Shown here piece after piece: positions 3,848 through 63,950 of a stretch of DNA of 64,000 nucleotides. The notes beneath the pieces were generated by a model. It did not search any database and had not been told where the DNA came from. It saw only the letters and a list, made by a program, of their open reading frames with translations. Made by a program: the position numbers and the translations under genes. Each line of letters starts with the position of its first letter. Positions within the stretch are counted from its first letter, which is position 1. Source of the stretch: Nannobrachium achirus (lineage: Eukaryota; Chordata; Actinopteri; Myctophiformes; Myctophidae); NCBI GenBank assembly GCA_963921795.1, contig OY997651.1, positions 55,395,142-55,459,141 of the forward strand, given 5' to 3'.

Positions 3848-3900
3848 ATCTGCAAGCTTGCAGGGCGTTGATTTGCTGTGAGCTTGAAGATCGGCTATTT
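3848..3900. repeat. Micro-palindrome family, degenerate copy
   Basis: Left arm ATCTGCAAGCTTG, right arm GTGAGCTTGAAGATCGGCTA, loop about 20 nt. It is orthologous to 25773-25830, 50470-50527 and 53433-53490. Confidence 0.7.
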
Positions 3901-4016
3901 TTTTGCAGAGACGTTTGGTATAATGGGGGGTGGGGTCCAAGTACTGTAAGTAACTGTACCTTTGTACTAAGAGTCCTGGGTTTGATACGTCCATCCATTT
4001 AATAAAGGGTTTTAAG

Positions 4017-4487
4017 TAGCTCCTTTCGGAACCCCTCACTCCACTGCTCCGAGATGGGGTTCCTACTGATCGCATGCCGGAATCCTGCGGCTGGATCGCC
4101 AATCCGCCGTTAGCGAACACTTCTTACCTTTGGTGAACACTCTATCCAAAAAGTGACGGGTCTCTGTTAATCTATAATCGTTTTACTTCTTTAAGGTGGA
4201 AGAAACTCGAAGCACTGGGGTGAAATAAAGACTTTATATCGCTCAGATGGTCAGCCGGTTCTGTGTTTTCCCCGTTGTGTAACTTGTGTATATACCACGT
4301 GACCAGGGGAGGCAGTAATGTTTTCCTATGCGGCCGCAACTTCCGGAATGTCTAAAAACACAGAACCGGCTGATCTTGTTCGCTAACGGCGGATCGGCGA
4401 TCCAGCCGCAGGATTCCGGCATACGACCAGTAGGAACCCCATCTCGGAGCTGCGTAGCAGTGGAGTGAGGGGTTCCGAAAGGAGCTA
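4017..4487. mobile_element. MITE with ~100-bp terminal inverted repeats
   Basis: The ends read TAGCTCCTTTCGGAACCCC and its complement. The arms match over about 100 bp (4017-4115 against 4378-4487). An inner inverted pair contains AGCCGGTTCTGTGTTTT (near 4253) and its complement (near 4355). Unit 2 (about 25905) lacks the segment. TA flanks both ends, which would fit a TA-target element. No coding sequence is seen. Confidence 0.7.
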
Positions 4488-4689
4488 GGTATTAAATATT
4501 TCATACATACATTCATTTAATAGACATGACGCATCATGAACAATTTTAATGAGTCAGTGATGATGCATGGATTTGGATAGCACATCTTTATGAGCAAGCA
4601 GTGAATGGAGAAATCTCATTCTTCCTAATAGTTTTATGTCCATAGAAAAGTCTTTCACTCTTTAATTTCAGAATCAGTAACCCTTCAGA

Positions 4690-4845
4690 CATTCCAGGAA
4701 ACAGACTGGTAGACATGTTCCACTCCGAGGCGGCTGAGGATATAAAGTAAAGGATGTTAAGGCAGACATGTGTAGCTCCTTGAAAGACCCTGACATCCAG
4801 GGGCGTCAATTGGGTATGGCAGGGGTATGCAGCTGCCATACCCTG
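4690..4845 (+). other. Conserved block with QKTFQE-like reading and small hairpin, copy 1
   Basis: A block present in four copies (also 25928, 50620 and 53583). The other copies read VQKTFQEPDWFHSETAEDV. In copy 1 it is shifted by indels. It ends in a hairpin GGGTATGGCAG...CTGCCATACCC (4812-4843). It may be a further exon of the cysteine-cluster element, but this is not established. Confidence 0.4.
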
Positions 4846-5134
4846 GGTCCAGGGGGGGAAATGAAAGTTACTTTTAAATATACATCCATGAATGTCTCTT
4901 TGTCTATCTGTGCTGGTTATTATGTTGTTAAACTACAGTAAAATAACTACAAATGCAAAATGTAACAAAATGGACACTTTAACAAGGTATTATAATTATA
5001 TTCTCCACACTTGTATTCTCCCCATCTTGACAAAATGGTATATTCCCAGTTTCCGCAGGTCAGCTGCACAGGTGCAATGCATTATTGTTAATTGTGGCAC
5101 GTTTACTAACATGTCAAGTTTAGCTGCATTTGAA

Positions 5135-5400
5135 CAACCGTTCCAGGCTGCCATACGCCCCCTTTCGCCAGGGGGGAGGCAGTATAGAAACCAGGACTAC
5201 TGCATGTTTTTGTGAGGGTATCTACCCTAGGAGACACGGGGAGAACATGCAAACTCCACACAGAAAGGCCCTTTCGCCAACCCCACCTAGGGTGTGGGCG
5301 CTGATGGCGCGGAGGAGGAATCACGCCGACAGCGTCCCCTGGCAGGAATCTAACCCAGGACCTTCTAGCTATGAGGCGACAGTGACCGCTGGGGGAAAAA
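5135..5400 (-). mobile_element. V-SINE/DANA-like SINE, unit 1
   Basis: In reverse orientation it reads a tRNA-like head with the B-box-like AGGTCCTGGGTT, then the body with GAGTTTGCATGTTCTCCCCG. It is the complement of the SINE at 9012-9300. These motifs are typical of the tRNA-derived V-SINE superfamily of fishes. The remaining ORFs across it are spurious. Confidence 0.75.
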
Positions 5401-5465
5401 AACAGGCGACCTCATTCATTTAAATGTCCAACACATTCTCACCCCCAAGGTGTCAGGCACCTGAT

Positions 5466-5790
5466 GCCCTGTCATGTACCCTACTGCGTCACAGCAGGGG
5501 ACGCCACGGGTATGCCTACTGCTTCAAGTATGGGACGCTTTGGGTATGCCCAGTGGTCTAAGATTTGAGTATGCCCAGTGGCGGGACGGCTCTCTACTCT
5601 TATTTACATTTCACAACACACACAGCAAGAGCACTTGTTACTACTTTTGGTCAAAGTGGGGATCGAACCGGCGACATTGGGATCCATACTTCCCCTTTTT
5701 GGAAAAGTTAGTGTTAACATTTCAGTGCTTTTAGAAAATATACAGATACATAATCGTTTGCAGCAGGATTTCACATGAAGCTGAGTTAGA
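5466..5790. repeat. Dispersed repeat with tRNA-like box, copy 1
   Basis: The repeat carries GGGGATCGAACCGGCGAC, which in reverse is a tRNA B-box-like sequence, followed by a body with CAGCAGGATTTCACATGAAG. It recurs at 26696-27020, 28589-28920 and 40990-41330. It is probably a tRNA-related SINE. The 66-86 aa ORFs in it are reading through repeat. Confidence 0.55.
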
Positions 5791-6002
5791 ATTGCATCCT
5801 TTCCCAAAAGGCTTTGTCGGTCTGTCGGTCTGTCGGTCGGTCGGTCGGTCCCTCTTTTCCTCAGTGTGCCTGTGTTTGCCTCTGACTGCTCATCTGCCCC
5901 TCCCTTCCCTTGCTCGGCTGATTGCCTTGAGTGCCGTCACCTGTACAGGACCAGCTGAGTTGAGTTGGCTGACGAGCTGCTGACACTATAAATTCCTCAG
6001 CC

Positions 6003-6016
6003 CATCTACAAGCTCA
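6003..6016 (+). repeat. Micro-palindrome half-site
   Basis: Left arm CATCTACAAGCTCA without a matching right arm nearby. Confidence 0.5.
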
Positions 6017-6080
6017 GAAACATTTCCAGCTGCTCAGCCTATACAATCCTGTGTGTTCATGTGTTAGTTCAGTGCCATAC

Positions 6081-6107
6081 TAGTGAAAACAGCCGATCTA
6101 CAAGCTC
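6081..6107 (+). repeat. Micro-palindrome half-site
   Basis: The left arm begins TAGTGAAAACAGCCGATC, as at 40725, and runs to CAAGCTC. No full right arm follows. Confidence 0.65.
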
Positions 6108-7733
6108 TTGATCCCACGAGCTATACCAGCTGGAGTCTTGCACTCCTGCCAGCGTCACGCTTGCCGGACAGGTCAAAGGAGAGAGGCCAGACTAAGATTG
6201 ATCCATCCCCCCCCCCCCCCACCCCCCCCCTTCCTTGCATTCTGATTTTCATTGCGGGTCTGGCAGAACCAGGTGACCTGGTCTAGTTTCTCAAGATTTC
6301 TCTCCTTTTCCCTTTTTTCTTCTCCGTTAGAGTCATGTGTTCCCCAGCGAGTCCGAAGCGCGTCAGGGGCGTGAAGCAGGGTGGGTGAGAACGGGCTGAA
6401 ATGTTGCGTGCCTTCATTGCTGTCTTCTGTGAAGGAATGTGTGGCAGCATTCCACAGCTATTGTCTATAGGCGATAATTAATCGTCAGCCGCTGCCCAGT
6501 TTGTCAGTTTCTCTGCATTCAAATGCAAAGCTAAAGGCAATCAATCCGAACCAGTTCCTACAAAGTCTCGCCAACTATTTAGAAAGGTGATTCAGTGATA
6601 AACTGCTTAAAGATCTCATCGTTCTGGATCAAAACACCTGGCCTTTATCCCCCTAACCCATGCTTTGGTGAGTCACAAGTGAAACGGCTCTGCATTTATG
6701 CAATGAAAGAATTAGTTGAGGAGCCACAAAGTGAACCTGAAAGCCTAAAGCCACTAATACAATGCATGAAGACCATCCCTTGCAGCACAGCAGAGAGTGA
6801 AAGAGCTTTCAGTCTTATGAACCTTATATGCACTGACAGGATATATTGCATGTTGTTGTCCAATGTAAGTAATTTGATGGTGATCAATGAAAATGGTCCC
6901 CTGTAACCAGTGTTGGGCAATATTACTTAGGAGAGTAATCGTTACTTATTACTTATTACTCCTTGGAAAAAGTAATAATATTATATTACTTATTACTTGG
7001 AATCAAGAGTAATATGATATATAGTAAGTTATATTACTTTTTTTTATTTTTTTTTATTGCAAAATCTGTTTAGACAGCTCCTTTTAGAACTGAATCCAAT
7101 TTATTCGAACAATAAGAGTCTCTGGGATGCGATTAAAGAAATTATAATTGCAGGCTTTGTAATTAATTAATCTCAATTAATCACATTTTAATCACACATC
7201 AATATTTGACCTGGGAACAGTTAGAAACTTTTTTAATGGATTTTGGTATAGGCCTATAAGCGAATCAATTAATAATTAAGACATAATATATAACCCAACC
7301 CGAATTGCTTATTTTTTATTACATTTAAAACTCTCAGCTCTGTTGAAGACCCCTGCCTATATTATTCTTAAATAATAGGCTACATATTTTCTTTTCTGCC
7401 TAAAAAGTTTAGGCTATTTTAGACGTGAGGTGCAGGGGCTCTGGGTGTTCCCACTAAGGAAAGTAGGCTTTCAACTCCCTAAAACCGTCTATTTCGGTGA
7501 GTAGTTTTACATTTTACAACAGACATGAGCAGTATCGCTTTGGAGGCCGGACGCGACCGGACGCCGTGTGGTCGGAAAAATTCCCACACGGACGCACGGA
7601 CGGCACCGAACGGTGCACGACCGTGTAAACGCGTGCGTCAATAAATGACCGTCCGCCCGGAAAAGAAAATCCCAAAGCACCACTGGACATGAGGCTTATT
7701 GGGCTCAGACAGTGGAGGCTACGTAGCCTTTAC

Positions 7734-7819
7734 ATTAAGACGCATTCTGCCGAGACTTTCGCATTGTGACATTCGCCCCAATGTCACAATGCGAAAGTCT
7801 CGGCAGAAAGCGTCTTAAT
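7734..7819. repeat. Near-perfect 86-nt hairpin
   Basis: Arms of 40 nt (7734-7773 and 7780-7819) pair with one mismatch around a 6-nt loop CGCCCC. The arm begins ATTAAGACGC and ends TTGTGACATT. Weaker pairing continues outward through GGCTAC motifs. It lies inside the hAT element. Confidence 0.95.
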
Positions 7820-8121
7820 ATAAGGCTAGAGGCTACGCTAACTGGCTAACAGCAGCAACTCAGTCCGCAGTGGTCCACGGTGGTCCCGCTGAGCTCACGG
7901 ACCCCTCCGCGGCGGAGTCGGGCGGACCCCCGCGCGACGGACCCCCCCGCGACGGACCCCTCCGCGGCCGAGAGGAGTGCTTGTAGATTGTAAATGTCCC
8001 ATTCATGTAAGCGCGTCGCACGCTATGCTCTCTCTGTGACTGTGACAGGCAGCGCAGCGCTGACACTGGACTGGTCTCATGACATAAGCCACGTCATAAC
8101 TGTGCGCACTGCGCAAATGAC

Positions 8122-8179
8122 TGATCTACAAGCTACATCGCATCTCTGTAGATGTATGTTGATGTCTTGTAGATCTGTT
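8122..8179. repeat. Micro-palindrome, inside hAT element
   Basis: Left arm GATCTACAAGCTAC, right arm CTTGTAGATCTG, with a GC/AT-mixed loop that includes CATCGCATC. It sits inside the 6908-8355 element. Confidence 0.7.
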
Positions 8180-8635
8180 CTTTTTCGGCAATCGGCTAAA
8201 ATGGCTAGTAACGGAGTAGCGAGGCTTTTATTTTGCGGAGTAAAGCGTTATATATTACCATTTTTTTTAGAGTAATACCTTACACTACTCGTTACTGGAA
8301 AAAGTAATAATATTACAGTAATATATTATTAGTAATTCGTTACTGCCCAACACTGCCTGTAACTAGTTTCCAGCCAACACACTATGTCAAAACATGGATG
8401 GCGCAGCATCGTTCTAATAATAGTTAATCTGTAATAGATACAGGATTAATCACTGTATATCTGATAAGCCTCATCAGCATAACAATACTTGCACTCTTAC
8501 ATGGTAGCATTGAAAATGCTAAAAGCAGCTCCAAAGTGGTAGAGTTACAGGGTGATTAACATTAGAAGCACAACACATATTGTAATTGTACCCAGTCTTA
8601 CTGCATGCTCTCACTTATATGTGTGTATAGGGGAG

Positions 8636-9698
8636 AACGGGGTAAGATGAACCACTTTTTGCTTAAGTTGCCCTGGAAGCAAGACAAAGTGACATGGCAG
8701 TAAAATCAAAACATCTAGACATATTTCAGGATGTCTTCTATCATTTGAAATTAAGAGTTAGCATCTATGAAAAAGGGCCATAAAAATATGACTTATGTGG
8801 CTCAACTTCCCCCAGGTTAGGGGTAAGTTGATCCAAGTCAAGGGGTAAGTTGCCCCACATGGTATTCTTAACTTTAACAGTTTAAACTTGAACAAATAAT
8901 GTATTTACTTATCAGAAATATTTTAATAACACATTTCCCTTTTGCAAATAGTCCTATTTATTTTCTTACGGTTATTTAATCCTTAAGAAAAACTATTAAA
9001 CCCAATTAAATAGGGGGCCACGGTGGTGCAGTTGGCAGCACTGTCGCCCCGCAGCTAGAAGGTCCTGGGTTCGATTTCCGCCGGGGAAGCTGTGGGCGCT
9101 GGGGGCGGGTTCTCTCCTCCGCGTCATCAGCGCCCACACCCTAGGTGGGGTTGGCGAAAGATCCTTTCTGTGATGAGTTGCATGTTCTCCCCCCGTCTCC
9201 TAGGGTAGATACACAAACATGCAGTAATCCTGGTCTCAATAATGCCCTCCCCCTGGCCAGCCAGGGCACCTGATGGAGGGGAAAGGAACTGGTTGGAATA
9301 ACGTGTTCCTTCCACTGTCCATACCGGGGAAATCCCCCCTGTCAGGTGAAAATAAACAACTTGGACTACTCATGCATTGAAGGAAGCATGAGGTCAGTCT
9401 GTTGTCTCCCCAGGCACGGAAGAGGGAGAGCAGAGCCCAGGATTACATAGCTTAGACAATTGGCACTGGGTGAAAAAAATGGGTTACAAAATTGTGGCAT
9501 AGAAAGTAAAAAAACAATTAAATAAAATGTTATTCAGAACCTTTTAATATTTGCAACTTCTCTTAAAAGAGTGTATTCATCAAAATGAAAGATCATTCAG
9601 CATAATTTGAGTAGCAAAGACCGAATAAAAAATATGAATGGTGATTCACATAGTTCAATTTACCTCAAGGCATTTGGTTCATCTTGCCCCACGCGCAA
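8636..9698. mobile_element. TIR element GGGGTAAGATGAACCA, unit 1
   Basis: The left end has GGGGTAAGATGAACCA and the right end TGGTTCATCTTGCCCC (9668-9695). The inside repeats GGGGTAAGTTG motifs and has no ORF. It is interrupted by a SINE at 9012. The paralogue is at about 31500-32425. The superfamily is not determined; exact ends and TSD were not fixed. Confidence 0.55.
9012..9300 (+). mobile_element. V-SINE/DANA-like SINE
   Basis: The tRNA-like head shows an A-box-like GGTGCAGTTGGCAGCACTG and a B-box-like GGTTCGATTTC. The body has CTAGGTGGGGTTGGCGAAAG and GCATGTTCTCC. It is inserted into the 8636-9698 element. Confidence 0.8.
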
Positions 9699-10221
9699 GC
9701 TTAATGCGTCAGGCTGATATTTAGCCAAATAATGGCCCATCAGATCAGAAGAATACAGTAGAATCAGATCAGAAGAATACAGTAGAAATAATATTATGTC
9801 CTATTAGGCCTATACATTAAACCACATCAAAGCCAACTGATTTTTACACATGTTGGCAAACATTTTATATGAATTGCAAGAATGAAATAAGTAGACAAAT
9901 TCAAACTTTGGGCACACATTTATTGTGCACATACTGCACTCACACTGACAACACATACATACAAGAAAAAGGTGCATAGCCAGCTTAGAATAATAAATGT
10001 ATAAATGCTTCATATTTCTTTTCTGATAAGGGGTCACGCCTCTCACACAAATGGACATGCATTGATCCCAAAACCCCCCAAGTTACTTCACACGTCAACA
10101 ACTTTTTGGAGCTGTGTGGAACACAAGCTCCCCATAGGCAGCAATGTGTGTCCTCACCAGAGTCTCACCAGAGTCTGTGTCCAGTCAAGAATGAACAGGA
10201 TCTGCGCATGCACGGCTTTAC

Positions 10222-10303: not shown

Positions 10304-10350
10304 CTCGAACGACCGAACGAACACATGGAGAAGAGAACGTGGCAATTAGC

Positions 10351-10368
10351 AAATCTACAAGCTCACAG
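10351..10368 (+). repeat. Micro-palindrome half-site
   Basis: Reads AAATCTACAAGCTCACAG; no right arm. Confidence 0.6.
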
Positions 10369-10438
10369 ACTTTACCACACACCCGCGCGCGTGCACACAC
10401 GGCTCAAACGACCGAACACAGAGAACGTAGCAAGTAGC

Positions 10439-10470
10439 AAATCTACAAGTTCACAATGAGTCGCATCCCG
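10439..10470 (+). repeat. Micro-palindrome half-site
   Basis: The left arm ATCTACAAGTTCAC is followed by AATGAGTCGCATCC, the same core motif as the full copy at 28335. Confidence 0.65.
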
Positions 10471-10671
10471 GCAGAAATTGTGTTCACAGTGAGTGCAGCC
10501 TGTGTCGACAAGCCAAGCGCATCTCTCACTCTCCCCAAGCCTGCCCTGCATTCCTCCCTGACCCCCCCCCCCCCCCCCCCCCCCCCCCCCACCCCCACCC
10601 CACACACACACACACACCCACCCACCCACACGCTCGAATGACGAACGAACACACGGAGAGGAGAACGTAGC

Positions 10672-10704
10672 ACATCTACAAGCTCACAATGCGTTGCATC
10701 CCAG
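10672..10704 (+). repeat. Micro-palindrome half-site
   Basis: The left arm CATCTACAAGCTCAC is followed by AATGCGTTGCATCCC. It keeps left arm and core but not the right arm. Confidence 0.65.
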
Positions 10705-17603: not shown

Positions 17604-17994
17604 TGAATAAAAGCGAAACCTTGCTTATCGTTATAAACAATAACAATCTTAATTTGTCTTCAAGATTTGCTACCTTTGAGCACCTGATGGCATTTTGGAA
17701 CCTGATCGAACCATTCACAGCCAACATGATCACAGTCACCCGAGCACAGAGAGCCCAGCAGAGGAATGAGGAAATCATTTTTCTATGTACTTACTCAGTA
17801 AGTTTAGTCAGGCTGGTTTAATATTTTGTGCTGTGTTGAATGTCTGTTATAATCGATATACCAGAGGGGTAGGCAACCTTAGGCATACTGGTGCAAAACA
17901 ATTGTGTATCTACTATCCTTGCATGTTTGGTTGAATCTTGAGAGCTGGCTTGGCCTTTCACTGGGGCTGGTGGAGTGAAAACCTGGTGCGAGTT

Positions 17995-18021
17995 GCTGTG
18001 AGCTTGTAGATGGGCTATTTT
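17995..18021 (-). repeat. Micro-palindrome half-site
   Basis: Right arm TGTGAGCTTGTAGATGGGCT. The orthologue is at 35455. Confidence 0.65.
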
Positions 18022-18202
18022 CACAGAGGTACATGGAGAAAAAGAGCAGCTCAAGTACAAGGCAAACAGTCACCATGTATCCATCAATAATTCTATAATG
18101 TGTGATATCGATTACCGGTCCATTGCTTGGCTGAATACCGAGAGCTGTATTGGCACAGCGGTGGGCCTTTGACTGGGGCTGGCAGAGAGAAGAGGGCGGG
18201 AA

Positions 18203-18223: not shown

Positions 18224-18500
18224 CAGAGGTGGGGGAGGGGGAAGGGGGGGAGCAGTATTCAGAAATCATAATTCAATAATGTGTGGCATCCATTACCTGG
18301 CCATTGCTTGGCTGAATCCCGAGAGCTGTCTTGGCCGAGATGTGGGGGGGAGCAGATTAATGAACAGAACAAACAGTCAAGTTTACCAGGTATGCAGCAA
18401 TACTAAAGGCAATGATAGTCTGTGTGCATCCATTACCTGTGCATTGCATGGCTGAATCCTGCCAGTTGGCTTAGCACAGTGATGGGCCTTTGTGCGAGTC

Positions 18501-18528
18501 TGTGTGAGCTTGTAGATTGGCTATATTC
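18501..18528 (-). repeat. Micro-palindrome half-site
   Basis: Right arm TGTGAGCTTGTAGATTGGCT; orthologues at 35914 and 38557. Confidence 0.65.
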
Positions 18529-18759
18529 AAAGAGTGTTTAGTGTAGAGGGGAACAAAATATCAGATCAAGCACAGAGCAACAGTCAGGTTTACCAAGTAT
18601 CCAGCGAAAATGCAATTATGTGCAGGGCAGCCACAAAGCATTTTGGTGCCTGACTCACAACTGGCTGTTGGGTGAAACCCACAATGCCTTGTTGTTTTCA
18701 AGAGTGGATGGCGCGGGGGAAGGCAGTAAGTCTAGTAAAAAAGGAAAAGTTTTACCAAG

Positions 18760-20478: not shown

Positions 20479-20501
20479 CAACTTATAGATCTGCTATTTT
20501 T
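20479..20501 (-). repeat. Micro-palindrome half-site (degenerate)
   Basis: CAACTTATAGATCTGCTATTTT; orthologue at 39028. Confidence 0.5.
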
Positions 20502-20573
20502 GAAAAATCGTGAACATTTGTGCAAGTCTTTGAATATCTTTGACCAGATTCTATAATTGTCTTTCCTTCTTAT

Positions 20574-25594: not shown

Positions 25595-25772
25595 AACACA
25601 CACAAATCCTGTCCCTGCACCTTTGATGATCACACCATCCTGTCCCTGCACCTTTGCCTTTTCTTGGGGCAGTCTGTCAGGGTAATCTACTGTACACTTA
25701 AGGCACTGATGAAGCTTTAACCACTTTAAGCCAGATCCATATTCAGTGGGGGACGTTGGCTAGAGATAACCT

Positions 25773-25830
25773 ATCTACAAGCTTGCAGCTTGTTGATTTG
25801 CTGTGAGCTTGTGCCTAGATCGGCTATTTT
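25773..25830. repeat. Micro-palindrome, degenerate copy
   Basis: Left ATCTACAAGCTTGC, right GTGAGCTTGTGCCTAGATCG. Orthologue of 3848-3900. Confidence 0.7.
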
Positions 25831-25927
25831 TGGCAGAGACATTTGGTATAGTATAGTATAGGGTGGGGTCCAAGTACTGTAAGTACCGGTAACTGTACCT
25901 TTGTACTAACCGTTCTGCACCCTGCAA

Positions 25928-27698: not shown

Positions 27699-28026
27699 TA
27701 ACCGACCCGGCGACCCCAGCATCCCGAATATTAATATTTATTATTTGGTCTGGTTCAAAATAAATTAATGGCAGTCACTGCAAATCAACAGTCAATTTCC
27801 CTTGGTCCAATAAACTATGGTCCTAAATAAACTAAAGTTCCTCCTTAGTTTAAAACCTATGCGTTTCTCCCTGCTCGCCGTGCGTAAATGTCTAGAGATC
27901 CCTCTCCCGGGTTGTTCACCAGCCATGTCCATAAAACAGCGCTACCAGTTGTGCATTGGTGTTTGGCTGAAAGATCAACGCTGGACTTTACACACCGTCT
28001 TTAGGCACGATGCATGGATTTGCACA

Positions 28027-28055
28027 GATCTACAAGCTCGCGAAGCTTGTAGATC
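28027..28055. repeat. Micro-palindrome, compact copy
   Basis: Perfect 12-nt arms GATCTACAAGCT and AGCTTGTAGATC around the 5-nt loop CGCGA. GGCTATTTT follows the right arm. Confidence 0.9.
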
Positions 28056-28085
28056 GGCTATTTTGCATGCATGCAAATCCAGTGG

Positions 28086-28260
28086 TGTAAAGTAAGTACA
28101 TTTAGGCCTACTTAAGTACTGTACTTACAATTTTTAGGTATCTGTAATTGAGTATTTCCAATACTTTTACTTCTACTCCACTACATCTCAGATCCAGAAT
28201 ATTGTACTTTTACTCCTCTACAATATATTTGAAAACTTTATTTACTAGTTACTTTTGCTT
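28086..28260 (+). mobile_element. hAT MITE fragment, AGTGGTGTAAAGTAA type
   Basis: It shows AGTGGTGTAAAGTAAGTAC, GAGTATTTCCAATACTTTTA and CTACTCCACTACATCTCAG, the signature of a common teleost hAT MITE. One end only. Confidence 0.7.
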
Positions 28261-28334
28261 GCAGATATAAATGATTATATTATAAAACATACACTAATGC
28301 ACTTTATCCCTATTCTATACCGTGGCTATTTGAA

Positions 28335-28384
28335 AATAGACGATCTACAAGCTCACAATGCGTCGCATCGCGAGCTTGTAGATC
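28335..28384. repeat. Micro-palindrome, full copy with core
   Basis: Arms GATCTACAAGCTC and GAGCTTGTAGATC pair exactly. The core ACAATGCGTCGCATCGC contains a small GCG..CGC palindrome. Confidence 0.9.
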
Positions 28385-28588
28385 TGTGCAAATCCATGCA
28401 TCGCCCATGCGGGCTAGTTCATTCCGTTGTAGTGCTTGACAATGTCTCTCCCTCTCTGAGTTTAAGGACACCGGACTATCGAGATTCGAAACATAAGGCC
28501 AACTTTTCTAGGGCCAAGGAGCCATGCCGGCATCGGATCTCCGTGCCGCCGGATTGTCGGCACGTCGGAATATCGAGATGTTACCCTG

Positions 28589-36270: not shown

Positions 36271-36620
36271 AAACCCTGTCACATGCTGCCCTGTCACTGC
36301 TGCTGCTGTCCGGCACACACAGAAGCTGCCGTGCCAACTGAGCGAGCCTGGGATAAACCGTGCTGTTTTTATTCCACCAGCACAGCAGATCCTTGTCGTC
36401 GCTATTTGGTGCTGTTGGCCTTTGGCTGCAAACATCTCTCCACCTCATCCTCCTCTGTTCCATCTCCTCCAAAACTGTTCTCCCACTCTGGGGTGTTGCA
36501 CCAAATCCTGGGCCCTGGTTACAAGGATTCACTGCGGGCCCCCCATGAATGTTCTTCATAGGGGGAGGAAGGGGTTTAACCCGTTTAGACTGGGAACGCA
36601 TTATTCTGTGTTATTTTGTG

Positions 36621-36718
36621 CTTTAACTATTGAAAATAGCAGATATACAAGCTCACAGCGCGGCACAGAGAGTGCCACGTGGTGAGCTTGTATATCGGCT
36701 ATTTTTCAATAGCTAAAG
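36621..36718. repeat. Micro-palindrome, long copy with covarying arms
   Basis: The palindrome runs from CTTTAACTATTGAAAATAGC to its inverse. The arms read GATATACAAGCTC and GAGCTTGTATATC, so both carry the same C-to-A/G-to-T change from consensus. A second hairpin, GGCAC AGAGA GTGCC, sits in the core. Confidence 0.92.
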
Positions 36719-36765
36719 TATAAAATAATTAAGGTCCCTCCACCTTGGGCCCGCCTCCCACTTCC

Positions 36766-39900: not shown

Positions 39901-40724
39901 ATAATAATATTAATAATAATATATATAATAATATAATAATTATTATAATAATATATATATGCTTACCCTTCTGTATGGAACAATGAACAATATGAAGAGG
40001 CTTATTATAGATATTTCCTTTAGGATTTCAATCATGTTTCATGTACAGTAAGTGTAATGCCGTTGCCTAATTCAGGTGTAGGACCTGTAGTGTTTTTATT
40101 GTGTGTATAACTGTGCCAAAATGCAGTTTTCTATGCATTTCAGGGGTTTTGGGGGGTTAGAGCCTCCCAATTTTTTTCGGCCGCGTAGCGACCCACTTTC
40201 ACCACTGGTTACAGGGAAGCTGTGCCCTATACACACACATACAATTGATGGCTTTCTATAATATGCAAGGACTAATGGTTTTAAACTGAACTGTATATGC
40301 ACTGATGACAGTAGGCTATGTATTGCATGGAAGCAACCAAACTCATATCCTTTGTTACCTATAGGTCTACTGACGCCCTGAAAATAGGCCTACAGATGGA
40401 TTTTAATTGCATTATTAATCAAATTACTCTGAAACTGATGCCAACAATTGCCATTCACCACTGTCATTGTCTACTATCATTACCATTCAGGGACCACTGG
40501 GAAAAGCGGGACAACTCCCGAACGGCCGGTTCATTCCCGGCCGGTCCAGGCCGGCCATTAGGAAAACATTAAAAATAAAATGTCGGCCTTCGTTCCATTT
40601 TGGGGGCTGGGCGGCCAACAAAGTAAATCGTCACTGTCGGGCAGAAACCTTGTATCTCCAAGTTTCAAATGTATACATTGCAAAGCAAAGCCCTGCTTCA
40701 TCAAACAAGGCCGTTGCACAAAAG

Positions 40725-40787
40725 TAGTGAAAACAGCAGAACTACAAGCACACAACGCGTGTGCTTGTAGATCGGCTGTTTTCACTA
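40725..40787. repeat. Micro-palindrome, 63-bp copy with covarying arms
   Basis: The arms of 29 nt begin TAGTGAAAACAGC and end CTACAAGCACAC. The right arm is GTGTGCTTGTAG. Both arms carry T-to-A/A-to-T relative to the consensus GCTCAC/GTGAGC, so pairing is kept. The loop is AACGC. Confidence 0.93.
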
Positions 40788-40938
40788 GTTTAACATTTTT
40801 TAAATGATAAATACAAAACAAACGGTTTTGGCCAAACAAGGTTTTCACCCGACGACAAAATATAAATCATGTACAGTAATTGGCCCACTGGCTTGTCACT
40901 TGTCATGATCTGAAATGGCAAATCTTTGAGTTGCAGCA

Positions 40939-41940: not shown

Positions 41941-41970
41941 AAAGATTTGCACACATTTTCACGACTTTTC

Positions 41971-42036
41971 AAAAATAGCAGATCTACAAGCTCGCATTGC
42001 GGCACTCGGTGCCGCGCTGTGCGCTTGTATATCTGC
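41971..42036. repeat. Micro-palindrome with strong inner hairpin
   Basis: Left AAAAATAGCAGATCTACAAG, right GCGCTTGTATATCTGC. The core has a second stem GCGGCAC TCG GTGCCGC (41999-42015). Confidence 0.88.
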
Positions 42037-50173: not shown

Positions 50174-50469
50174 TACATACTTGTATTTTGCATGCAGATG
50201 TGTCCACGTACTGCAACCGCTGTGGGATTTGTGGTCATTTCTTCCGTTACCAAGAATGGACAGAGGAGCTGCACGACTTTGAGGATCACACCATCCTGTC
50301 CCTGCACCTTTGATGATCACACCATCCTGTCCCTGCACCTTTGCCTTTTCTTGAGGCAGTCTTTCAGGGTAATCTACTGTACACTTAAGGCACTGATATA
50401 GCTTTAACCACTTTAAGCCAGCCTCCATATTTGTTGGGGGACATAACGGACGTTGGCTAGAGATAACCT

Positions 50470-50527
50470 ATCTACAAGCTTGCAGCGCATTGATTTGCTG
50501 TGAGCTTGTGCTTAGATCGGTTATTTT
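50470..50527. repeat. Micro-palindrome, degenerate copy
   Basis: ATCTACAAGCTTGC and GTGAGCTTGTGCTTAGATCG; orthologue of 3848. Confidence 0.7.
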
Positions 50528-50619
50528 TGGCAGAGACATTTGGTATAATGGGGGGTGGGGTCCAAGTACTGTAAGTACCGGTAACTGTACCTTTGTACTA
50601 AGCGTTCTGCACACTGCAG

Positions 50620-51939: not shown

Positions 51940-52085
51940 TCTATAAAAAGGGGGATTTCATATTAGGTGTTAGCCAAGATCATGTTGGTATTATGAAGTG
52001 AATGAATGCTACGCTGTATGATACGCTGCTATGAGAAGTAAACTCACTCAACTATAAAGTCGTTGTCAAGCCTTGTCAATATCTT
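51940..52085 (+). repeat. Polypurine tract and LTR, copy 4
   Basis: Duplicate of 48960-49107 with a few substitutions and a small deletion at CTTACACAAAG. Confidence 0.6.
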
Positions 52086-52635: not shown

Positions 52636-52730
52636 TACTGTACTGTACTGTACTGTACTGTACTGTACGTACTGTACTGTACTGTACTGTACTGTACTGT
52701 ACTGTACTGTACGTACTGTACTGTACTGTA
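52636..52730. repeat. (ACTGT)n microsatellite
   Basis: Longest of the four orthologous arrays. Confidence 0.9.
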
Positions 52731-53023
52731 CTGCCACCTGATGTGTCTTCACCACATAAAGTAATGCCAAAGGATGCATGTTCCCAGAGTGAAGAGAGAC
52801 CGCCAAAGCGCCTCATACCTCTTGAGAACTTTTGCACTGTCTGCCCTGGAAAGATTCCTCTCTCAGATCCAATGTTGATAACCCACAAAGCCAACATAGT
52901 GACATATAGTGGAATATTAGAGTATGTTTAGTTCATGAATACATTATTGATCCTTTAACTGGTTCTTTTGCTAAATGCAATGTAGCAATTTTTATTCACT
53001 CTACTTTTATGATCTCTCCCTCT

Positions 53024-53134
<111 letters not shown>

Positions 53135-53432
53135 AATACATACTTGTATTTTGCATGCAGATGTGTCCACGTACTGCAAACGGTGTGGGATTTGTGGTCA
53201 TTTCTTCCGTTACCAAGAATGGACAGAGGAGCTGCACGACTTTGAGGATCACACCATCCTCTCCCTGCACCTTTGATGATCACACCATCCTGTCCCTGCA
53301 CCTTTGCCTTTTCTTGAGGCAGTCTTTCAGGGTAATCTACTGTACACTTAAGGCACTGATATAGCTTTAACCACTTTAAGCCAGCCTCCATATTTGTTGG
53401 GGGACATAACGGACGTTGGCTAGAGATAACCT

Positions 53433-53490
53433 ATCTACAAGCTTGCAGCGCATTGATTTGCTGTGAGCTTGTGCTTAGATCGGTTATTTT
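53433..53490. repeat. Micro-palindrome, degenerate copy
   Basis: Duplicate of 50470-50527. Confidence 0.7.
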
Positions 53491-53582
53491 TGGCAGAGAC
53501 ATTTGGTATAATGGGGGGTGGGGTCCAAGTACTGTAAGTACCGGTAACTGTACCTTTGTACTAAGCGTTCTGCACACTGCAG

Positions 53583-53745
53583 GTGCAAAAGACATTCCAG
53601 GAACCAGACTGGTTCCACTCAGAGACAGCTGAGGATGTAAAGGATGTTAAGGCAGAAATGTGTAGCTCCTTGAAAGACCCTGACATCCAGGGGTGTCAAT
53701 TGGGTATGGCAGGGGTATGCAGCTGCCATACCCTGGGTCCAGGGG
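53583..53745 (+). other. QKTFQE block and hairpin, copy 4
   Basis: Same block as 50620. Here the downstream sequence continues (ATCTGTGCTGG) as in units 1 and 2. Confidence 0.4.
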
Positions 53746-53799
53746 GGGGGATAAAAGTTACTTTTAAATATAAATCCATGAATGTCTCTTTGTGTATCT

Positions 53800-54357
53800 G
53801 TGCTGGTTATTGTGTTTACAGTAAAATAACTACAAATGCAAAAAGAAACAATGTGGTCACTTTAACAAGGTATTATACACTTGTATTCTCCCCATCTTGA
53901 CAAAATGGTAGATTCCCAGGTTCCGCAGATCAGCTGCACTGGTGCAATGCATTATTGTTAATTGTGGCACGTTTACTAACATGCAGTGTTTAGCTGCACT
54001 TGAACAACCCTTTCAGGCTGCCATATCCAGCTCAAGAAACCCGGGGAAAAAACTTTGCCATACCCTAGCTATTGAGGGACCGTATCTGATCCTTGATAGT
54101 AGAGAGTAGTGGACAAACCACTAAAAGCCATCATTTCGACAACGGAGCATCGGGAGGGTTAGCGACACATACCGGTAGAAAACAGCAAAATGCTCCCCCA
54201 CTAAAATAATTGGATCTTCATGCCATTTTGAAAATCCGTAAACATTAGACAGTACTCTGCAAGCTGTAGGCCATGTATGTTTTTTCAAAACCTGTCGGTA
54301 AGCACGCTAGAATGTCCCGGTCAAGAAGTAAATTCTTCAGACATGTTTTGAATAATA
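53800..54357. other. Unassigned segment
   Basis: The first 200 bp match the sequence after the QKTFQE block in units 1 and 2 (for example TTGTTAATTGTGGCACG). From about 54030 I see no gene or repeat family. Confidence 0.5.
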
Positions 54358-54580
54358 ACCAGTAAGACTCCCTAATCAGGAGATTAGCGACCGCCAGGTC
54401 ACATGTATACACAAATACGCCTGAGACATGCTGTGTACCGCTTTGTGTGACTTTAGGGCAAAATCTATAGGAGCAGTGTCCAAAAATGTGTTTTGCAAAA
54501 ATTGGCCTAATGGTGACACTAAATGGGACAGATCCATGTTGATGACATGACTATAGACATACTGTGTACCGCTTTGTGTG
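54358..54580. mobile_element. Hairpin-ended element, 5' fragment
   Basis: ACCAGTAAGACTCCC start and GTGTCCAAAAATGTGTTTTG body. The 3' end with the GGTCGC hairpin is missing. Confidence 0.65.
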
Positions 54581-56390
54581 AACAGTGAAATAAGAATCTC
54601 TAAAACAATAGAAAGAAGTAAATTAAATAATTTTAACACTCATGTTTTATATTCTTTAATTACAATCAAAAATATGAACCATTGTTGTAAAAAAACTAAA
54701 GTTGTCCTTTAAAGTGGTGTTATATCCTGCCCGGCTTCTGCCTGAACACCTGGAGTTTGTGCAGCACACGGACGGTTGGCAGCTGTGTCTCCCTGACACA
54801 CAGAACTTTACAGGCTTGGTTAAAGTTGTCCAGAATGAGCCTCGTCTCTCCCAAACTTTGGCTCATGGACTGCGCAATGCCAAAATTGATGTTTGCGGCA
54901 ATCTGTGAAATGCACTCCTTCGTGTAGAGTATGTAGTGCTCACAATTCATGTCCAGAGATGTGTTGTTCCCAGCACCTACGTTGACATTCACAGCCCTAT
55001 TCCATCGCAGTCTATGGGCCTCACTTGGGCTAAGTAAAGCATGGAGATCTAACTGGAGTTTCAGTGCCTCCAAGCTGTACCGATGTCAACCGGCCTGTCT
55101 AAAATGAAGCATCTTAAATGTCCATAGCCGGCTCCCCCTCCTTCACCGAATCCTGGACATTTCTCTCTAGCATGGCCATCTTCAGTAAATGAGTGTGGTA
55201 ATTATAAACACCATCAGTTATAAAACCACTCTGAGATGTGGTTGCTGTGGTTGGAGGAGTGTGATGGGAAAGTTGGAAACCATGTACTTCCTTTTCGTGT
55301 TTGAGATCTTTTAGATTAGCGAATGGTGGATAGAGACACTCATCTAAATGGCATTTGTGTTGTGTTTCAGGCTGTCTCTTTGGTCTTGGAGCTGGTGCTG
55401 GGAAAATTGTTGGTGTGTGGTCATTCAAAATATAGCTCTCCACAATGATGCCAAGTTGAGTGTCAAACCATTGCTGTTTCTCTAATGGAGAGCTGAAATG
55501 ACTTGGTGGGGTGTTTTGTTTGGGCAAATCCTGCACATATGTCTAGTCCAAATGTAAGCCAAAATGTACTACTATTAATATCTCTGTCGTATCCAAAACA
55601 ACCCGTCAATGACAAAGTCAGAGACAGTGGTTTAAAGTTAGTTTTAAACCACTAGGGTGAAGTTAGTTCAAAGCCACTGGGGCAACACAAATTAAGTAGC
55701 AGCATAGACTGTACAAACAAAAAAGGGTAAAAAGAACAGCGGTTCACCGTCTAACAGGCACAATCTCTAGACCCATGTGTCTCATACACAGGGACGGCTC
55801 TAGTTTGTGGCTTGTTGACCCATCTATTGAAGACATAAACATGACCCATCTTTGCTTCTCTGAGCTTGTGTGCAAACACATGTCACTGACAGCTCAGACT
55901 TCTAGTCCTGAGCTCCAAAATGAATGTCATTATGCCACGAGCACAAACACAAGGCAACACACCGCCAGCAGCGTGAAGCAGGCAACCTGGACAAACGCAT
56001 TCTCACTCTGCCTGTACAGACACCTAATATGCCATTTTGAAAAGGCTGGTGCCATTGCACACACCAGGTACCAGTCCCACTGATTACTGTGGGACTGCCA
56101 TTGCACACACCTATCCCACTTATCACACAAAGCAGTCCAAAGTAGCTGTGGTTTGGAGGGCATATGACATCCTTGATGAATGCATCATTTGCTCTAAAAT
56201 GGTCTCCCAGTGCTGATGCGTTTACATTTCACCTGTCAGTTACATTCCTCAAGTGAAACAACATGCCAATCTCTGGTTTGGAGGAAACATTATAGAACTC
56301 TTTGAAAATGACTTAATTGAAGTTCATGCTGCAATGAAAGTCAGCAACAGAATTAACAATGCCAATGTTTCTCTCATACGCTGTCTTGCT

Positions 56391-58291: not shown

Positions 58292-58789
58292 CTTTGCTGC
58301 GTCTCGCTGACCGTTTTCAAGAGGAAAGAAGAGCTTAAAGTAAGCACAACTTTGCTAGTGTTCCGTGTTGATAGCCTGTTTCTATGGTTTATAGCCGATC
58401 TGCAAACTCCGCGACGAATTGTGACAGTGATGCACGCAGCAAGAGAGGCGGCACGTCTATAATGTGAGCTTGTAGATTCAGTGTTTTCGACGGAGCTTGC
58501 GCGTGTGTGAGAGTGATAAGAGAGACAGAGAGACCCCGACGCTGCGCTGCTGCTCACTGGACCTCCAGCGTGCAGCCGCGAGGGCCAGTCAGATATGTAT
58601 CCGCCCTGCAACGCTCATTTCTCGGCCACAAACGTTTTCATGCCACAGACCTCCAATATTTACATGCGACTTCGGCACTAGCCGTTAAGAAAGTATGGAT
58701 GAACTCCCCCCGAATCTAAATAATTTCGGGTTGGGGAGCCCTCCCGAACCGAAATTAGTTAGGCTCCTTATTAGAGTGTATAACGACCC
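57867..58789. mobile_element. PIF/Harbinger-like MITE, 923 bp, nested
   Basis: The inverted ends share ACACTCTAATAAGGAGCC and CTAACTAATTTCGGTTCGG, over about 45 bp in total. TAA at both flanks (57864-57866, 58790-58792) fits the 3-bp TWA target of PIF/Harbinger. It contains a CA microsatellite (58225-58290) and a micro-palindrome (58391). Confidence 0.85.
58391..58487. repeat. Micro-palindrome with long loop
   Basis: Left ATAGCCGATCTGCAAACTC, right TGTGAGCTTGTAGATTCAG, with a ~53-nt loop. It lies inside the Harbinger-like MITE. Confidence 0.65.
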
Positions 58790-60482: not shown

Positions 60483-61590
60483 TAAAAACGTACCGGTATA
60501 TAAAAGGCTGCTGGTCAATAGAACCTAATAATGGCACCCTGGCCATTTCGATTCTGGGATCCCCCGGAGTTACTGTCTTGAGAAAGACTCTGAACCCCTA
60601 ACTGTGTTTTTTTATTTTACTTTTTCTTTATTGTTTTTTAAAATATTTTCCCTTTTTTTTCCTGACTATCTACTGCATAGTACTGTCTTCTATCTGTCTG
60701 TCTTTCAATGTTATATGAGATACTTCAATGGTTTCCTATGGAAATAAGCGTAGTCTTTTCTAGGATCTCCTTTTAGTAGACCTTGTACCAGTGAACTGTA
60801 CCGTCATGAAACTGTACCTTTTCCTATGCAAACTTCTAATGAAGTCTTCAATCACTCAATCAAAACTGCTCCTGATGTGCAGGTTGGTGCCTTGCATGGT
60901 TTCCTCTGACATCGGGGTATTAATGTGTTTGTGTGAATGGTTGACTACAATCATGTTAAATCGCCTTTGATAAAGGCACTACATAAATCCTTTGATAAAG
61001 GCACTACATAAATGCACTACATAAATGCATCATTTACCATTTAGATGTATAAGTATGATGTAAAAACAAATATTGCATGACACGAAGGCCCTTTGAGTTT
61101 TGATTCTGCACTTTTGTATCCTACTGACTCACCTGTTAATGTAACAGCGACACGATCCCAAGCTATACATGTATCGTGGCATCCAAGCCATGGTTATTGA
61201 ACATTGTGGAAAAGACATCGAGGTTAGGCAATTACCTTCTCCACTGAATCGCTGTGTGGCCCCAAGAGAGATTCTTCAGTTAGACCTGAAGCAGCATGGC
61301 CCTTTTGAACAAAACACATAATTGAACATGGTTAAAAAAGGTGCTGAGCAAATACTGTAGCAGTTCACTTCTAGAATGAGGGTAAAGATGTTGTGTGGCA
61401 TTAAATGTAATATAATTTCATTTTATCTTTGAAGGGTTTAATACAAATAAAGGGGGATCTTTATTATTTTACTAATTAAATGTACAAACCTCTTCACCAG
61501 TAGGACACGGCACATTGAGTGTCCATTCCATTTCCTGGCATTCTCCACTTGAATGACCTACTCTTTCCACTGATCAATTCCACTTTCACT
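60483..61590. other. Unassigned segment within the DUF6589 locus
   Basis: It holds a small simple-repeat/SINE-tail piece with CACTACATAAATGCA (60970-61030). No coding block is recognised. It may be an intron of the decayed gene. Confidence 0.4.
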
Positions 61591-62301
61591 TCTTTCACAC
61601 AGGATCAATGAATTGATATACTGTGGTTTGTACACATGCATGGATAAGGGTTGCTCCAGCCATGGGCATAGCACACGTCTTGATTGTTGCGTTTGGGGTG
61701 TCTGAAGATGAGAGTTCAAATGTCACTTGACTTGCTTGCTGCAGGAATTTGAGAAAGGTTGGCGCATGATCTCTCCACTCAACCGTTGTCCATTTCAAGT
61801 TTTTCAAGTCTTCCCGGCTGGTTTATCGCAAGATGAACCCAAATCTGCAACTGACTAGTCTTTTTACTTCCTCCTTTACTTCTTTCAGCACTTCAGCAAT
61901 CATCCTTCTTTTATTTCAGGGATCTTCATTAGAGCAGGTGGGAGTCTGTGGTACTGGCCCCGAAACAGCCTATCTGCAACTTTTTCATATGGCCCAGTGA
62001 TGTGTCTTATTGATGTAGAATAGATGAACCAGCCTATCAGTTACTTTTTCATATGGCCTAGTGCTGTGTCTTATTGATGTAGATGTTGCATACTTCACAG
62101 TGACCTTAAACACAATTAATTATACCACAATCAAAAGGAGTGCAAGATAATGATGTACAGTAACACACTTTATGTAAGGGGCTTGAAAACAGACGCATTG
62201 TGTAATTATTTATTATATTAAAAAAAGAAGAAAAAAAAACCTACAGTGTGGTAACAACAATAGCAGTCTGCATCTTCTGGTGTAGGCTACGCAGTGCTAG
62301 C

Positions 62302-63254
62302 TAGGCCTGGGGCGGTATCGACATTTTGTTACCGCGATTACCGTCTTCCCATTTACCGCCGGTACTGCGGTAATTACCGCACCCCCGTATCTATTAATTA
62401 AGGTTCGGCGATAAGCCAAAATATTGCAATCATCTTCCCTAAAGTCGCCTCTCCACAGCCTGACTGCCCGAGTTATACTTCTCCGTACAGCACAGCGGGT
62501 ATGGCTTTGAAAGGAGCAGATCTACAAGCTCACAACAAATCGCATCCGCGACGCGTTCTGAGCTTTTAGATCTGCACTGTCGGGTTACCATAGTAACGTA
62601 GAATAGCTACTTGGGCTATTCAGACACAAACAGCTGTGTGAACAAACCAGAAGAGGACGGGTATTCAGATCGTGTACAGTGATTCTGTAAACTCACGTCA
62701 CGTCTCAACTCTCAAATCGCAGTGATTGAGTGCTGCTATATACAGGTTTTAGTTACAAGACTTGACAGAAAAGGTTATAAAATCGCCGACGCGCCGCCGG
62801 ACGGAGCACAACGTGCGACGCGGTGGAAAAAGTAAAATAGTTTCATTTTCGGTTTTAGTCCACGCGGCCCGCGCTCCGCCAGTAATCCGTATGAATAAAA
62901 AAAGATATGCCACAACACAAGGTATGTATTAACATCCTTGTGTCGTGTGGATTACAGAGAAAGTTTACGCTGCTCTGTACTCGCGGCTGCTGTGCTGCTC
63001 TGTGTAGGTCTGACTGTCTGTGTCTCTGAGAGTGAAAGTGACGTATGTGGCTTCCAACATGTGGTACACGGCCCAGAGCAGAGCGGCATGGAGTGCATGC
63101 GGTCCTCGCTTCTCCCCTGTTTTAAAACTCGCTTGTTTTCCAATAAAAAATATACTTTTTTTTGTCTTTTTTTACCGCGGTAAGCACACTGACACTGCGG
63201 TAGACCTCGGTTTACCGCGGTACGGCGGTACGGCGGTTACCGTGTCCAACCCTA
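62302..63254. mobile_element. hAT-like MITE TAGGCCTGGGGCGG, 953 bp
   Basis: Left end TAGGCCTGGGG and right end CCAACCCTA are imperfect inverses with GGTATCG/CGGTTACCG repeats just inside. The 8-bp TSD GTGCTAGC lies at 62294-62301 and 63255-63262. It is related by its end to the 18956-20455 element. It has no transposase. It carries a micro-palindrome (62516) and GC-rich blocks. Confidence 0.85.
62516..62575. repeat. Micro-palindrome, inside hAT-like MITE
   Basis: Left GCAGATCTACAAGCTCA, right TGAGCTTTTAGATCTGC (one mismatch), core with CGCATCCGCGACGCG. Confidence 0.88.
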
Positions 63255-63262
63255 GTGCTAGC

Positions 63263-63888
63263 TATTAATAATAGGTTGGTGTTAGGGCACACATTGGCAC
63301 ACCTAAGTGTAACACTGTTACTGGCTTGTATTTGACCATGTATTTAACCATAACAGGAACACAAACGGCAAAAAGATTCATTACAGGGAGAGGTCTTTTA
63401 AAATTGAAGAGGGAGACACACATTAAGACACACATTAAGATGAAAACATGCTGTGGCGATTCACGTGGACACCGCCCCGCAGGTAGGCCCTGCACCTCGG
63501 TGAAACGCACCCTGGACGGGAGAGCGAGGCCAGGAGTGACAACGAGGAGGCTGGGACAGGCGATTGAAGGGCAGTACTTCCCCACTTACCTGCTTCATCA
63601 GACTGATCACCCCGCACCTGTGCCAGCCAGAAGAGGAAGGACAATAAAAGCCACCTACTCGCTCTCCCACAGTTAGTGCTGGGATGAATACAATGGGCAT
63701 GCAGGCGCTAAGTGAATGCCACTATGAAATCCATAGTGAACACCATCGTGACATGCTTTCTGTTTTCATCCTACGCCATATGGGGGAAATGGCTACTTTG
63801 ATATTAAATTTAATGAATCCATATCTCTTCAGTTTAACATGTCTTAGACAGTCCGTTCTTTTTCAATCCACACCAAATCTCTTTGCCT
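63263..63888. other. Unassigned segment
   Basis: Overlapping ORFs of 69-116 aa occur on both strands at 63265-63700, but none shows a recognised domain. I see no other feature. Confidence 0.4.
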
Positions 63889-63950
63889 AAATAGATGATC
63901 TACAACAAGCTCACAGCAACACATTGTGAGCATGTAGATCAGCTATTTTT
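63889..63950. repeat. Micro-palindrome, full copy
   Basis: Left AAATAGATGATCTACAACAA then GCTCACA, right TGTGAGCATGTAGATCAGCT. The left arm has a 3-nt insertion. Confidence 0.85.

What the first reader, a model, noticed from the sequence alone, without database searches (positions are those of the whole stretch)
3848..63950. An abundant dispersed micro-palindrome family of ~60 bp
Arms of the form AAAATAGCCGATCTACAAGC + TCACA and its inverse recur at least 26 times in 64 kb, at about 14 independent loci after discounting duplicated copies. Full copies: 8122, 28027, 28335, 36621, 40725, 41971, 58391, 62516 and 63889, plus degenerate copies at 3848, 25773, 50470 and 53433. The arm length (22-29 nt), tight loop and GC-rich core look like a mobile hairpin or a small-RNA precursor. 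I do not recognise it as a known fish repeat.
Basis: partly seen in the sequence, partly recalled or inferred. Interest (0 to 1): 0.88.

Follow-up and report, generated by a model that had tools for sequence, protein, structure and literature searches.

The report
Hugely abundant hairpin inside fish transposons
A short self-complementary DNA hairpin in this fish-like genome is repeated hundreds of thousands of times, often carried inside small DNA transposons of several different families, and its arms seem to be rebuilt and lost by errors of DNA copying.

Summary
The arm core GATCTACAAGCTCACA (up to 2 mismatches) occurs 760,917 times in the 1.66-Gb genome holding the window, reversed control 405; an exact 25-mer occurs 27,560 times, control 0. 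It does not behave like a free ~60-bp element with fixed ends. It is a palindromic module of about 70-85 bp. Where carriers could be resolved it lies inside non-autonomous hAT-type transposons with different ends: family A (CAGGGGTCTTCAAC; 8-bp target duplications within 1 mismatch in 5 of 9 complete copies), family B (CAGTGGTGTAAAG) and a CAGTGTTGGGC element at window 6908-8355; families C, E and G have hAT-like left ends only. Many carriers stay unidentified (61 of 147 copies without a flank label). Copies lacking the hairpin look mainly like deletion products; one B subfamily counts 1,125 with and 52 without. Bases just outside the core are private to each family yet palindromic (23 chosen loci; 0 of 20,000 permutations), suggesting outward regrowth by template switching, or insertion into palindromes. 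How one hairpin entered several families is not shown. Closest precedents: coral CMITEs, zebrafish Angel. A small-RNA role is untested.

The parts
3828..3901 (-). two-armed degenerate hairpin, family A-like flanks; paralogues at 25752-25832, 50448-50529, 53411-53492
   Evidence: arm profile; alignment of the four copies; A flank match of three of the paralogues
25752..25832 (-). paralogue of the 3848 hairpin
50448..50529 (-). paralogue of the 3848 hairpin (another at 53411-53492)
5998..6120 (+). two one-armed copies (5998-6029, 6082-6120) inside a ~480-bp stretch absent from the paralogous units
6908..8355 (.). hAT-type element carrying the 8122 hairpin; ends CAGTGTTGGGC / GCCCAACACTG; target duplication CCTGTAAC at 6900-6907 and 8356-8363; site without the element in a paralogous unit near 29690
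8103..8190 (+). two-armed degenerate hairpin with an altered loop
10336..10700 (+). three one-armed copies in tandem (10336-10377, 10424-10468, 10659-10700)
17984..18030 (-). one-armed copy, family A-like left flank; paralogue 35443-35490
18492..18537 (-). one-armed copy, family A-like left flank; paralogues 35905-35949, 38548-38592
20482..20511 (-). truncated copy, family E flank; a similar copy at 39024-39050
28007..28073 (-). palindrome whose right arm is interrupted by the element at 28080-28386
28080..28386 (+). family B hAT-type element (CAGTGGTGTAAAG...), target duplication TGCAAATC at 28072-28079 and 28387-28394, ending in its own hairpin (about 28331-28386)
36605..36735 (+). longest palindrome of the window; both outer arms resemble the right flank of family E, i.e. 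an inverted duplication
40721..40791 (-). palindrome of family H (AACAGC and GCACAC in both arms)
41961..42036 (+). two-armed hairpin, family E flank; a hAT-like end CAGTGGTGCTCAAAC starts at 41803
58387..58498 (-). degenerate two-armed copy with a long loop
62500..62575 (+). two-armed hairpin, family J (one other copy seen, L202:794)
63884..63961 (-). two-armed hairpin, family A-like flank

Best explanation
It is a palindromic module, consensus about GAAAATAGCCGATCTACAAGCTCACAACGCstCGC...GCGasGCGTTGTGAGCTTGTAGATCkGCTATTTTC, that sits inside several non-autonomous hAT-type families with different ends. SHOWN: its abundance; its place inside elements with hAT-type ends and 8-bp target duplications (family A, one family B element, the window 6908 element); the mostly irregular or remnant-bearing junctions of copies without it; private but palindromic outer arms. 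INFERRED: (1) copies multiply mainly as passengers when hAT transposase moves the carrier; (2) the palindrome is a replication template-switch hotspot, and fold-back copying re-makes one arm from the other and runs a few to tens of bases into the flank, giving private palindromic outer arms and variants shared by both arms of a family founder; (3) slippage between short direct repeats such as CTATTT beside the palindrome removes one arm or the whole hairpin. NOT KNOWN: how the same hairpin got into unrelated hAT families (nested insertion, filler during gap repair, or end exchange).
For: Abundance: 27,560 exact 25-mers, control 0; 760,917 arms with up to 2 mismatches, control 405. Carriers: family A ends and 8-bp duplications, 5 of 9 distinct complete copies within 1 mismatch and 8 of 9 within 2, cross-pair rate 0 for the 1-mismatch rule; window 6908-8355 with CCTGTAAC and 28080-28386 with TGCAAATC; hAT-like left ends of C and G. 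Of 147 copies 48 have both flanks of one family, 4 have mixed labels (3 of them involve a low-complexity library entry) and 34 have one labelled flank. Of 20 exact copies taken from the first listed places on contig 1, I assign by eye 6 A-like, 4 B, 5 C, 2 I, 1 E, 2 unassigned. Hairpin is the main state in B: same left flank followed by hairpin 1,125, by the hairpin-less junction 52. Losses: 8 fetched hairpin-less A copies give 6 different junctions, three being one paralogous group; of 28 B copies 19 share GCTATTTTCAA[A/G]C, one more differs by substitutions, 8 are irregular, 2 of them (L257, L262) keeping arm remnants; of 9 G copies 4 share CTATTTTCACAAT, 5 differ, L274 keeping a remnant. 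Five hairpin-bearing B copies fall in separate places of a tree with 27 others, no support values. Outer arms: 23 loci, mean score 4.02 against 1.54, 11 of 23 scoring 4 or more against 6.5%. Template switching is described as making and maintaining hairpins in PMC8794818 (abstract and outline).
Against: 61 of 147 copies have no flank label and 34 only one, so many carriers are unidentified; 85 of 118 flanks of the unlabelled copies occur more than once in the sample, which suggests repeats but names none. Families D, H, I, J, K have no proven class; C, E and G lack a confirmed right end and duplication. Exact counts of an A flank 26-mer (2,240) and a B junction (2,153) are small beside the arm count. 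The commonest hairpin-less junctions in B and G could instead be pre-insertion sites with CTATTT as target duplication. Diverged A and B relatives without a hairpin exist (L209:8368, L206:5908, L207:6436) and could be ancestral. Arm correction is not visible after amplification in B, C, G, I.
Confidence: 0.58

Rival explanations
1. An independent micro-MITE: a ~60-75-bp palindromic transposon with its own transposase partner that inserted separately into the founders of several hAT families and into other DNA, with CTATTT-like target duplications.
For: The same hairpin occurs in families with different ends. In B and G it is flanked by (G)CTATTT and CTATT direct repeats, and the commonest hairpin-less form has one copy. 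Arms greatly outnumber exact A and B flank words. 61 of 147 copies have unlabelled flanks.
Against: Outer ends are private to families yet palindromic, unlike fixed terminal repeats. My scan for 8-bp duplications with terminal repeats found none convincing at the 22 window copies; it reached 900 bp only and so missed even the 6908 element. Near the ends of full window palindromes only short chance-like repeats of 6-7 bp were found, apart from the B insertion. A, B and G also show irregular or remnant-bearing junctions, and the hairpin-less form is 52 against 1,125 in B.
Confidence: 0.22
2. A functional internal cis-element of hAT MITEs: the hairpin helps transposase, replication or escape from silencing, so unrelated MITE founders that acquired it amplified most.
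For: Repeated association with several hAT-type families, near the middle of family A. The coral CMITE paper suggests such a role for an internal region shared between families (PMC2872659, section 14).
Against: After amplification the arms decay independently in B, C, G, I, and hairpin-less copies persist. No transposition data.
Confidence: 0.14
3. A small-RNA or structural-RNA precursor kept by selection for pairing.
For: Very stable folds, z from -10.5 to -16.5 in five chosen copies. Family founders share variants in both arms. In the window arms of one locus are somewhat closer than arms of different loci (0.238 against 0.272, permutation p 0.015, 10 loci). Pooled over all labels: 0.112 against 0.123, p 0.011.
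Against: The pooled signal comes largely from the mixed, unlabelled group (21 copies, p 0.0015); within A p 0.06, and B, C, G, I show none. No Rfam match in the window at gathering threshold. In four sampled loci one hairpin reached 41.9 bits against a cut-off of 41 for an insect flavivirus element, which I take as a chance match of a long perfect hairpin.
Confidence: 0.05

Closest known systems
CMITEs of Acropora corals (PMC2872659; abstract, sections 10 and 14 read)
   Same: Several MITE families with different terminal repeats share a ~75-bp internal region that is more conserved than the ends; tandem arrays occur; the origin of the internal region is unknown.
   Different: CMITEs are about 100 bp, piggyBac-like with TTAA duplications, about 1,600 copies estimated in one coral. 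Here the carriers that could be classed are hAT-type with 8-bp duplications, the shared region is a palindrome, and it is hundreds of times more numerous.
Angel elements of zebrafish (passages of PMC3636048; original description recalled only)
   Same: High-copy fish DNA elements with long inverted repeats that fold into stem-loops.
   Different: Angel is treated as one transposon family with a consensus; here the palindrome lies inside several families and has private outer arms. Sequence identity with Angel could not be tested.
Hairpins made or mended by template switching (PMC8794818, abstract and outline; PMC7999016, passages)
   Same: A mechanism that copies one arm onto the other and can create perfect stems in one event.
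   Different: There shown from ancestral reconstructions of RNA genes; here it is inferred for a repeat from private palindromic flanks and founder-level variants shared by both arms.
hAT non-autonomous elements / MITEs in general (recalled)
   Same: Terminal repeats beginning CA(G/A)..., 8-bp target duplications, no coding capacity in the carriers seen.
   Different: Different MITE families normally share ends with an autonomous parent, not an internal palindrome with one another.

Membership tests
hAT non-autonomous element (carriers) | 8-bp target-site duplication | tested here: met
   Family A: 5 of 9 distinct complete copies within 1 mismatch, 8 of 9 within 2; window 6908-8355 and 28080-28386 exact. 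Not shown for C, D, E, G, H, I, J, K.
hAT non-autonomous element (carriers) | short terminal inverted repeats of hAT type | tested here: met
   CAGGGGTCTTCAAC/GTTGAAGACCCCTG (A) and CAGTGTTGGGC/GCCCAACACTG (6908). The B copy in the window shares only CAG/CTG; for C and G a left end only.
hAT non-autonomous element (carriers) | mobilised by a hAT transposase of the same genome | tested here: inconclusive
   Two ORF pieces with the hAT dimerisation domain lie in the window (6583-6903, 29305-29703), but none was linked to a carrier.
stand-alone MITE (the hairpin itself) | constant ends shared by copies | tested here: not met
   Outer arms differ between families and loci although palindromic at each (23 chosen loci).
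stand-alone MITE (the hairpin itself) | target-site duplication | tested here: inconclusive
   CTATTT-type direct repeats in B and G only; none convincing elsewhere.
Angel (zebrafish) | sequence match to the Angel consensus | not testable with these tools
   No repeat library available; word search of papers for the core letters gave one unrelated listing.
CMITE-like MITE group | internal region shared by families with different ends | tested here: met
   Families A, B, C, G and the 6908 element share the core and differ in their ends.
microRNA or other Rfam hairpin | covariance-model match | tested here: not met
   No match in the window at gathering threshold; one marginal match in four sampled loci judged chance. 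Small-RNA reads not available.

The most novel reading that the evidence does not exclude
A palindrome without fixed ends that propagates as an 'apex module': it is re-made by fold-back synthesis primed at its GC-rich self-complementary tip, captures inverted copies of whatever flanks it, and passes between unrelated hAT MITEs during gap repair or template switching, so that a sequence of about 75 bp with no terminal signals of its own has reached an Alu-like density in a vertebrate genome.
Probability: 0.2. Interest if true: 0.87.

Novelty: new variant of a known kind. Interest (0 to 1): 0.62.

Why it matters
If right, one of the densest repeated words of a vertebrate genome (one arm per about 2.2 kb; comparable with human Alu density, recalled) is spread without ends or coding capacity of its own. 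Hundreds of thousands of natural replicates with private outer arms would make short-range template switching and palindrome loss measurable in vivo. They would also bear on why MITE families sometimes share their interior and not their ends, left open by the coral CMITE paper.

Tried and rejected
Fixed-end MITE: rejected as the main reading because outer arms are private to families yet palindromic and no constant duplication was seen. Tested and set aside: viral or bacterial relatives. The hairpin pattern gave 0 in viral contigs, and a 20-mer gave 6 coding-looking hits, four of them one sequence. Protein search with a frame through the hairpin: no candidates. Rfam. tRNA genes: none by ARAGORN. 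Chimeras of two families joined at the hairpin: only one of 147 copies with two informative, different labels. First empty-site screen over 273 kb was too noisy to use. A repeat count of unlabelled flanks failed through a naming slip and was redone. In early notes I wrote 5 of 9 G junctions and 'all different' A junctions; recounted here as 4 of 9 and 6 kinds among 8. Paper searches (listings only) found no report of this hairpin; that is no proof of absence, since most subscription papers are not held.
Full report
Observation. The recurrent arms are real: 18 matches of the 20-mer within 3 mismatches against 0.01 expected, and ATCTACAAGCT is the top 11-mer of the window after a low-complexity filter. 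A profile gives 32 arm hits above threshold; pairing at a looser threshold gives 26 copies, 10 two-armed and 16 one-armed. The window consists of segmental duplications, which reduce these to about 14-15 loci.

Scale. The window lies in a genome of 1,658,514,493 bases in 564 contigs; contig sizes returned later are 49-90 Mb for the large ones. The exact 25-mer AAAATAGCCGATCTACAAGCTCACA occurs 13,966 + 13,594 = 27,560 times, reversed control 0. The 16-mer GATCTACAAGCTCACA with up to 2 mismatches occurs 380,471 + 380,446 = 760,917 times, control 196 + 209 = 405: one arm per about 2.2 kb.

Anatomy. Intact copies read GAAAATAGC(C/A)GATCTACAAGCTCACAACGC... followed by a GC-rich tip and the inverse. 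Tips differ by family (CGCCTCGC in A, G and H; CGCGTCGC in B and C; GCGCGGCAC in E). Five chosen copies fold with z-scores from -10.5 to -16.5. Of 147 copies in about 0.3 Mb of mostly hit-centred sequence, 72 have two arms and 75 one.

Carriers. Family A is a non-autonomous hAT-type element, 414-486 bp in most complete copies, with ends CAGGGGTCTTCAAC.../...GTTGAAGACCCCTG and the hairpin near the middle. Nine distinct complete copies were found (each strand was listed, so 14 rows): duplications exact in 4, one mismatch in 1, two in 3, five in 1 (a copy with a collapsed hairpin). The one-mismatch copy, L187, uses a more distant right end than the others (660 bp). In the window, 6908-8355 has ends CAGTGTTGGGC/GCCCAACACTG and the duplication CCTGTAAC, with a site lacking it in a paralogous unit; 28080-28386 starts CAGTGGTGTAAAG and has TGCAAATC on both sides. 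Families C (CAGTGTTGATTTTGTTGAC) and G (CAGTGGTTCTCAAC) have hAT-like left ends, E a hAT-like start at window 41803, D starts TAGGG/TAGGC. D, H, I, J and K are not classed. Flank labels agree on both sides in 48 of 147 copies, disagree in 4 (3 involve a low-complexity library entry), are present on one side in 34 and absent in 61.

With and without the hairpin. Joined B flanks retrieve 40 scored hairpin-less B copies. Of the 28 read, 19 share the junction GCTATTTTCAA[A/G]C, L236 differs by substitutions, and 8 are irregular; L257 and L262 keep arm remnants, L256 and L258 keep the G that belongs to the hairpin form. For A, 8 fetched copies show 6 kinds of junction. For G, 4 of 9 share CTATTTTCACAAT, 5 differ and L274 keeps a remnant. 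With the same left flank, the hairpin form counts 1,125 and the hairpin-less form 52. A tree of 32 B copies places the 5 hairpin-bearing ones separately, two of them basal by midpoint rooting, without support values; the hairpin-less copies were selected by similarity to L217, so the sample is biased. The simplest reading is recurrent deletion by slippage between the direct repeats. A pre-insertion state with a CTATTT duplication remains possible, and diverged A and B relatives without a hairpin exist.

Private palindromic outer arms. For 23 loci chosen as representatives of families and singletons, the bases just beyond the core pair across the hairpin far better than when right sides are permuted: mean 4.02 against 1.54, sd 0.38, 0 of 20,000; 11 of 23 score 4 or more against 6.5%. 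Examples: CAAAAGAAGC at L203:69, ACAAAAGTAGC at L202:2147, CATTTG in L208:4955. At window 36621 both outer arms resemble the right flank of family E. These are not constant terminal repeats. They fit outward fold-back copying or insertion into palindromes.

Arms over time. Within families the two arms of a copy are not closer than permuted arms in B (0.116 against 0.110), C (0.120, 0.104), G (0.038, 0.035) and I (0.190, 0.190); A shows 0.079 against 0.088, p 0.06. The mixed unlabelled group shows 0.145 against 0.175, p 0.0015, and the pooled test p 0.011. In the window the arms of one locus differ by 0.238 against 0.272 between loci, p 0.015. Family founders nevertheless carry variants in both arms (ACATGC in G; AACAGC and GCACAC in H). 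I read this as correction before or at founding and free decay after.

Comparison. The closest published case I found is the coral CMITEs, whose families share an internal region more than their ends (PMC2872659, abstract and two sections). Zebrafish Angel is similar as a high-copy fish stem-loop element (passages). Template switching as a maker of hairpins is in PMC8794818 (abstract and outline). No repeat library was available, so a match to a named family is not excluded.

Noticed in passing
window 1-10100, 22134-34284, 46919-55323 and other blocks: The window is a patchwork of segmental duplications with several parallel units.
   Followed up: partly
window 45050-46323: A stretch of about 1.27 kb matches its own reverse complement at 86%, with a 48-bp perfect inverted repeat in its middle at 45621-45751.
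   Followed up: no
window 7730-7823: A separate 44-bp inverted repeat (95% complementary, 6-nt loop) inside the hAT-type element 6908-8355, not of this hairpin family.
   Followed up: no
window 6583-6903, 29305-29703, 23288-23704, 47256-47726: ORF pieces with a hAT dimerisation domain (first two) and with integrase and RNase H-like reverse-transcriptase domains (last two).
   Followed up: no
L208:4111-4290; G000 contig 1:469826-469964: Half-hairpins in short tandem arrays with a period of about 43-45 bp.
   Followed up: no
G000 contig 1:74-92 kb, contig 2:79.03-79.18 Mb, contig 6:74.94-74.96 Mb, contig 14:108-124 kb: Near-identical family G copies cluster close to the ends of several large contigs, suggesting a subtelomeric repeat.
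   Followed up: no
L221 compared with L217 (family B): The C/A asymmetry between the two arms is reversed relative to the same flanks, as if the hairpin had been inverted in place.
   Followed up: no
L226:302-387: The hairpin reaches 41.9 bits against a cut-off of 41 for the Rfam insect flavivirus CRE family; I take it as a chance match of a long perfect hairpin.
   Followed up: partly
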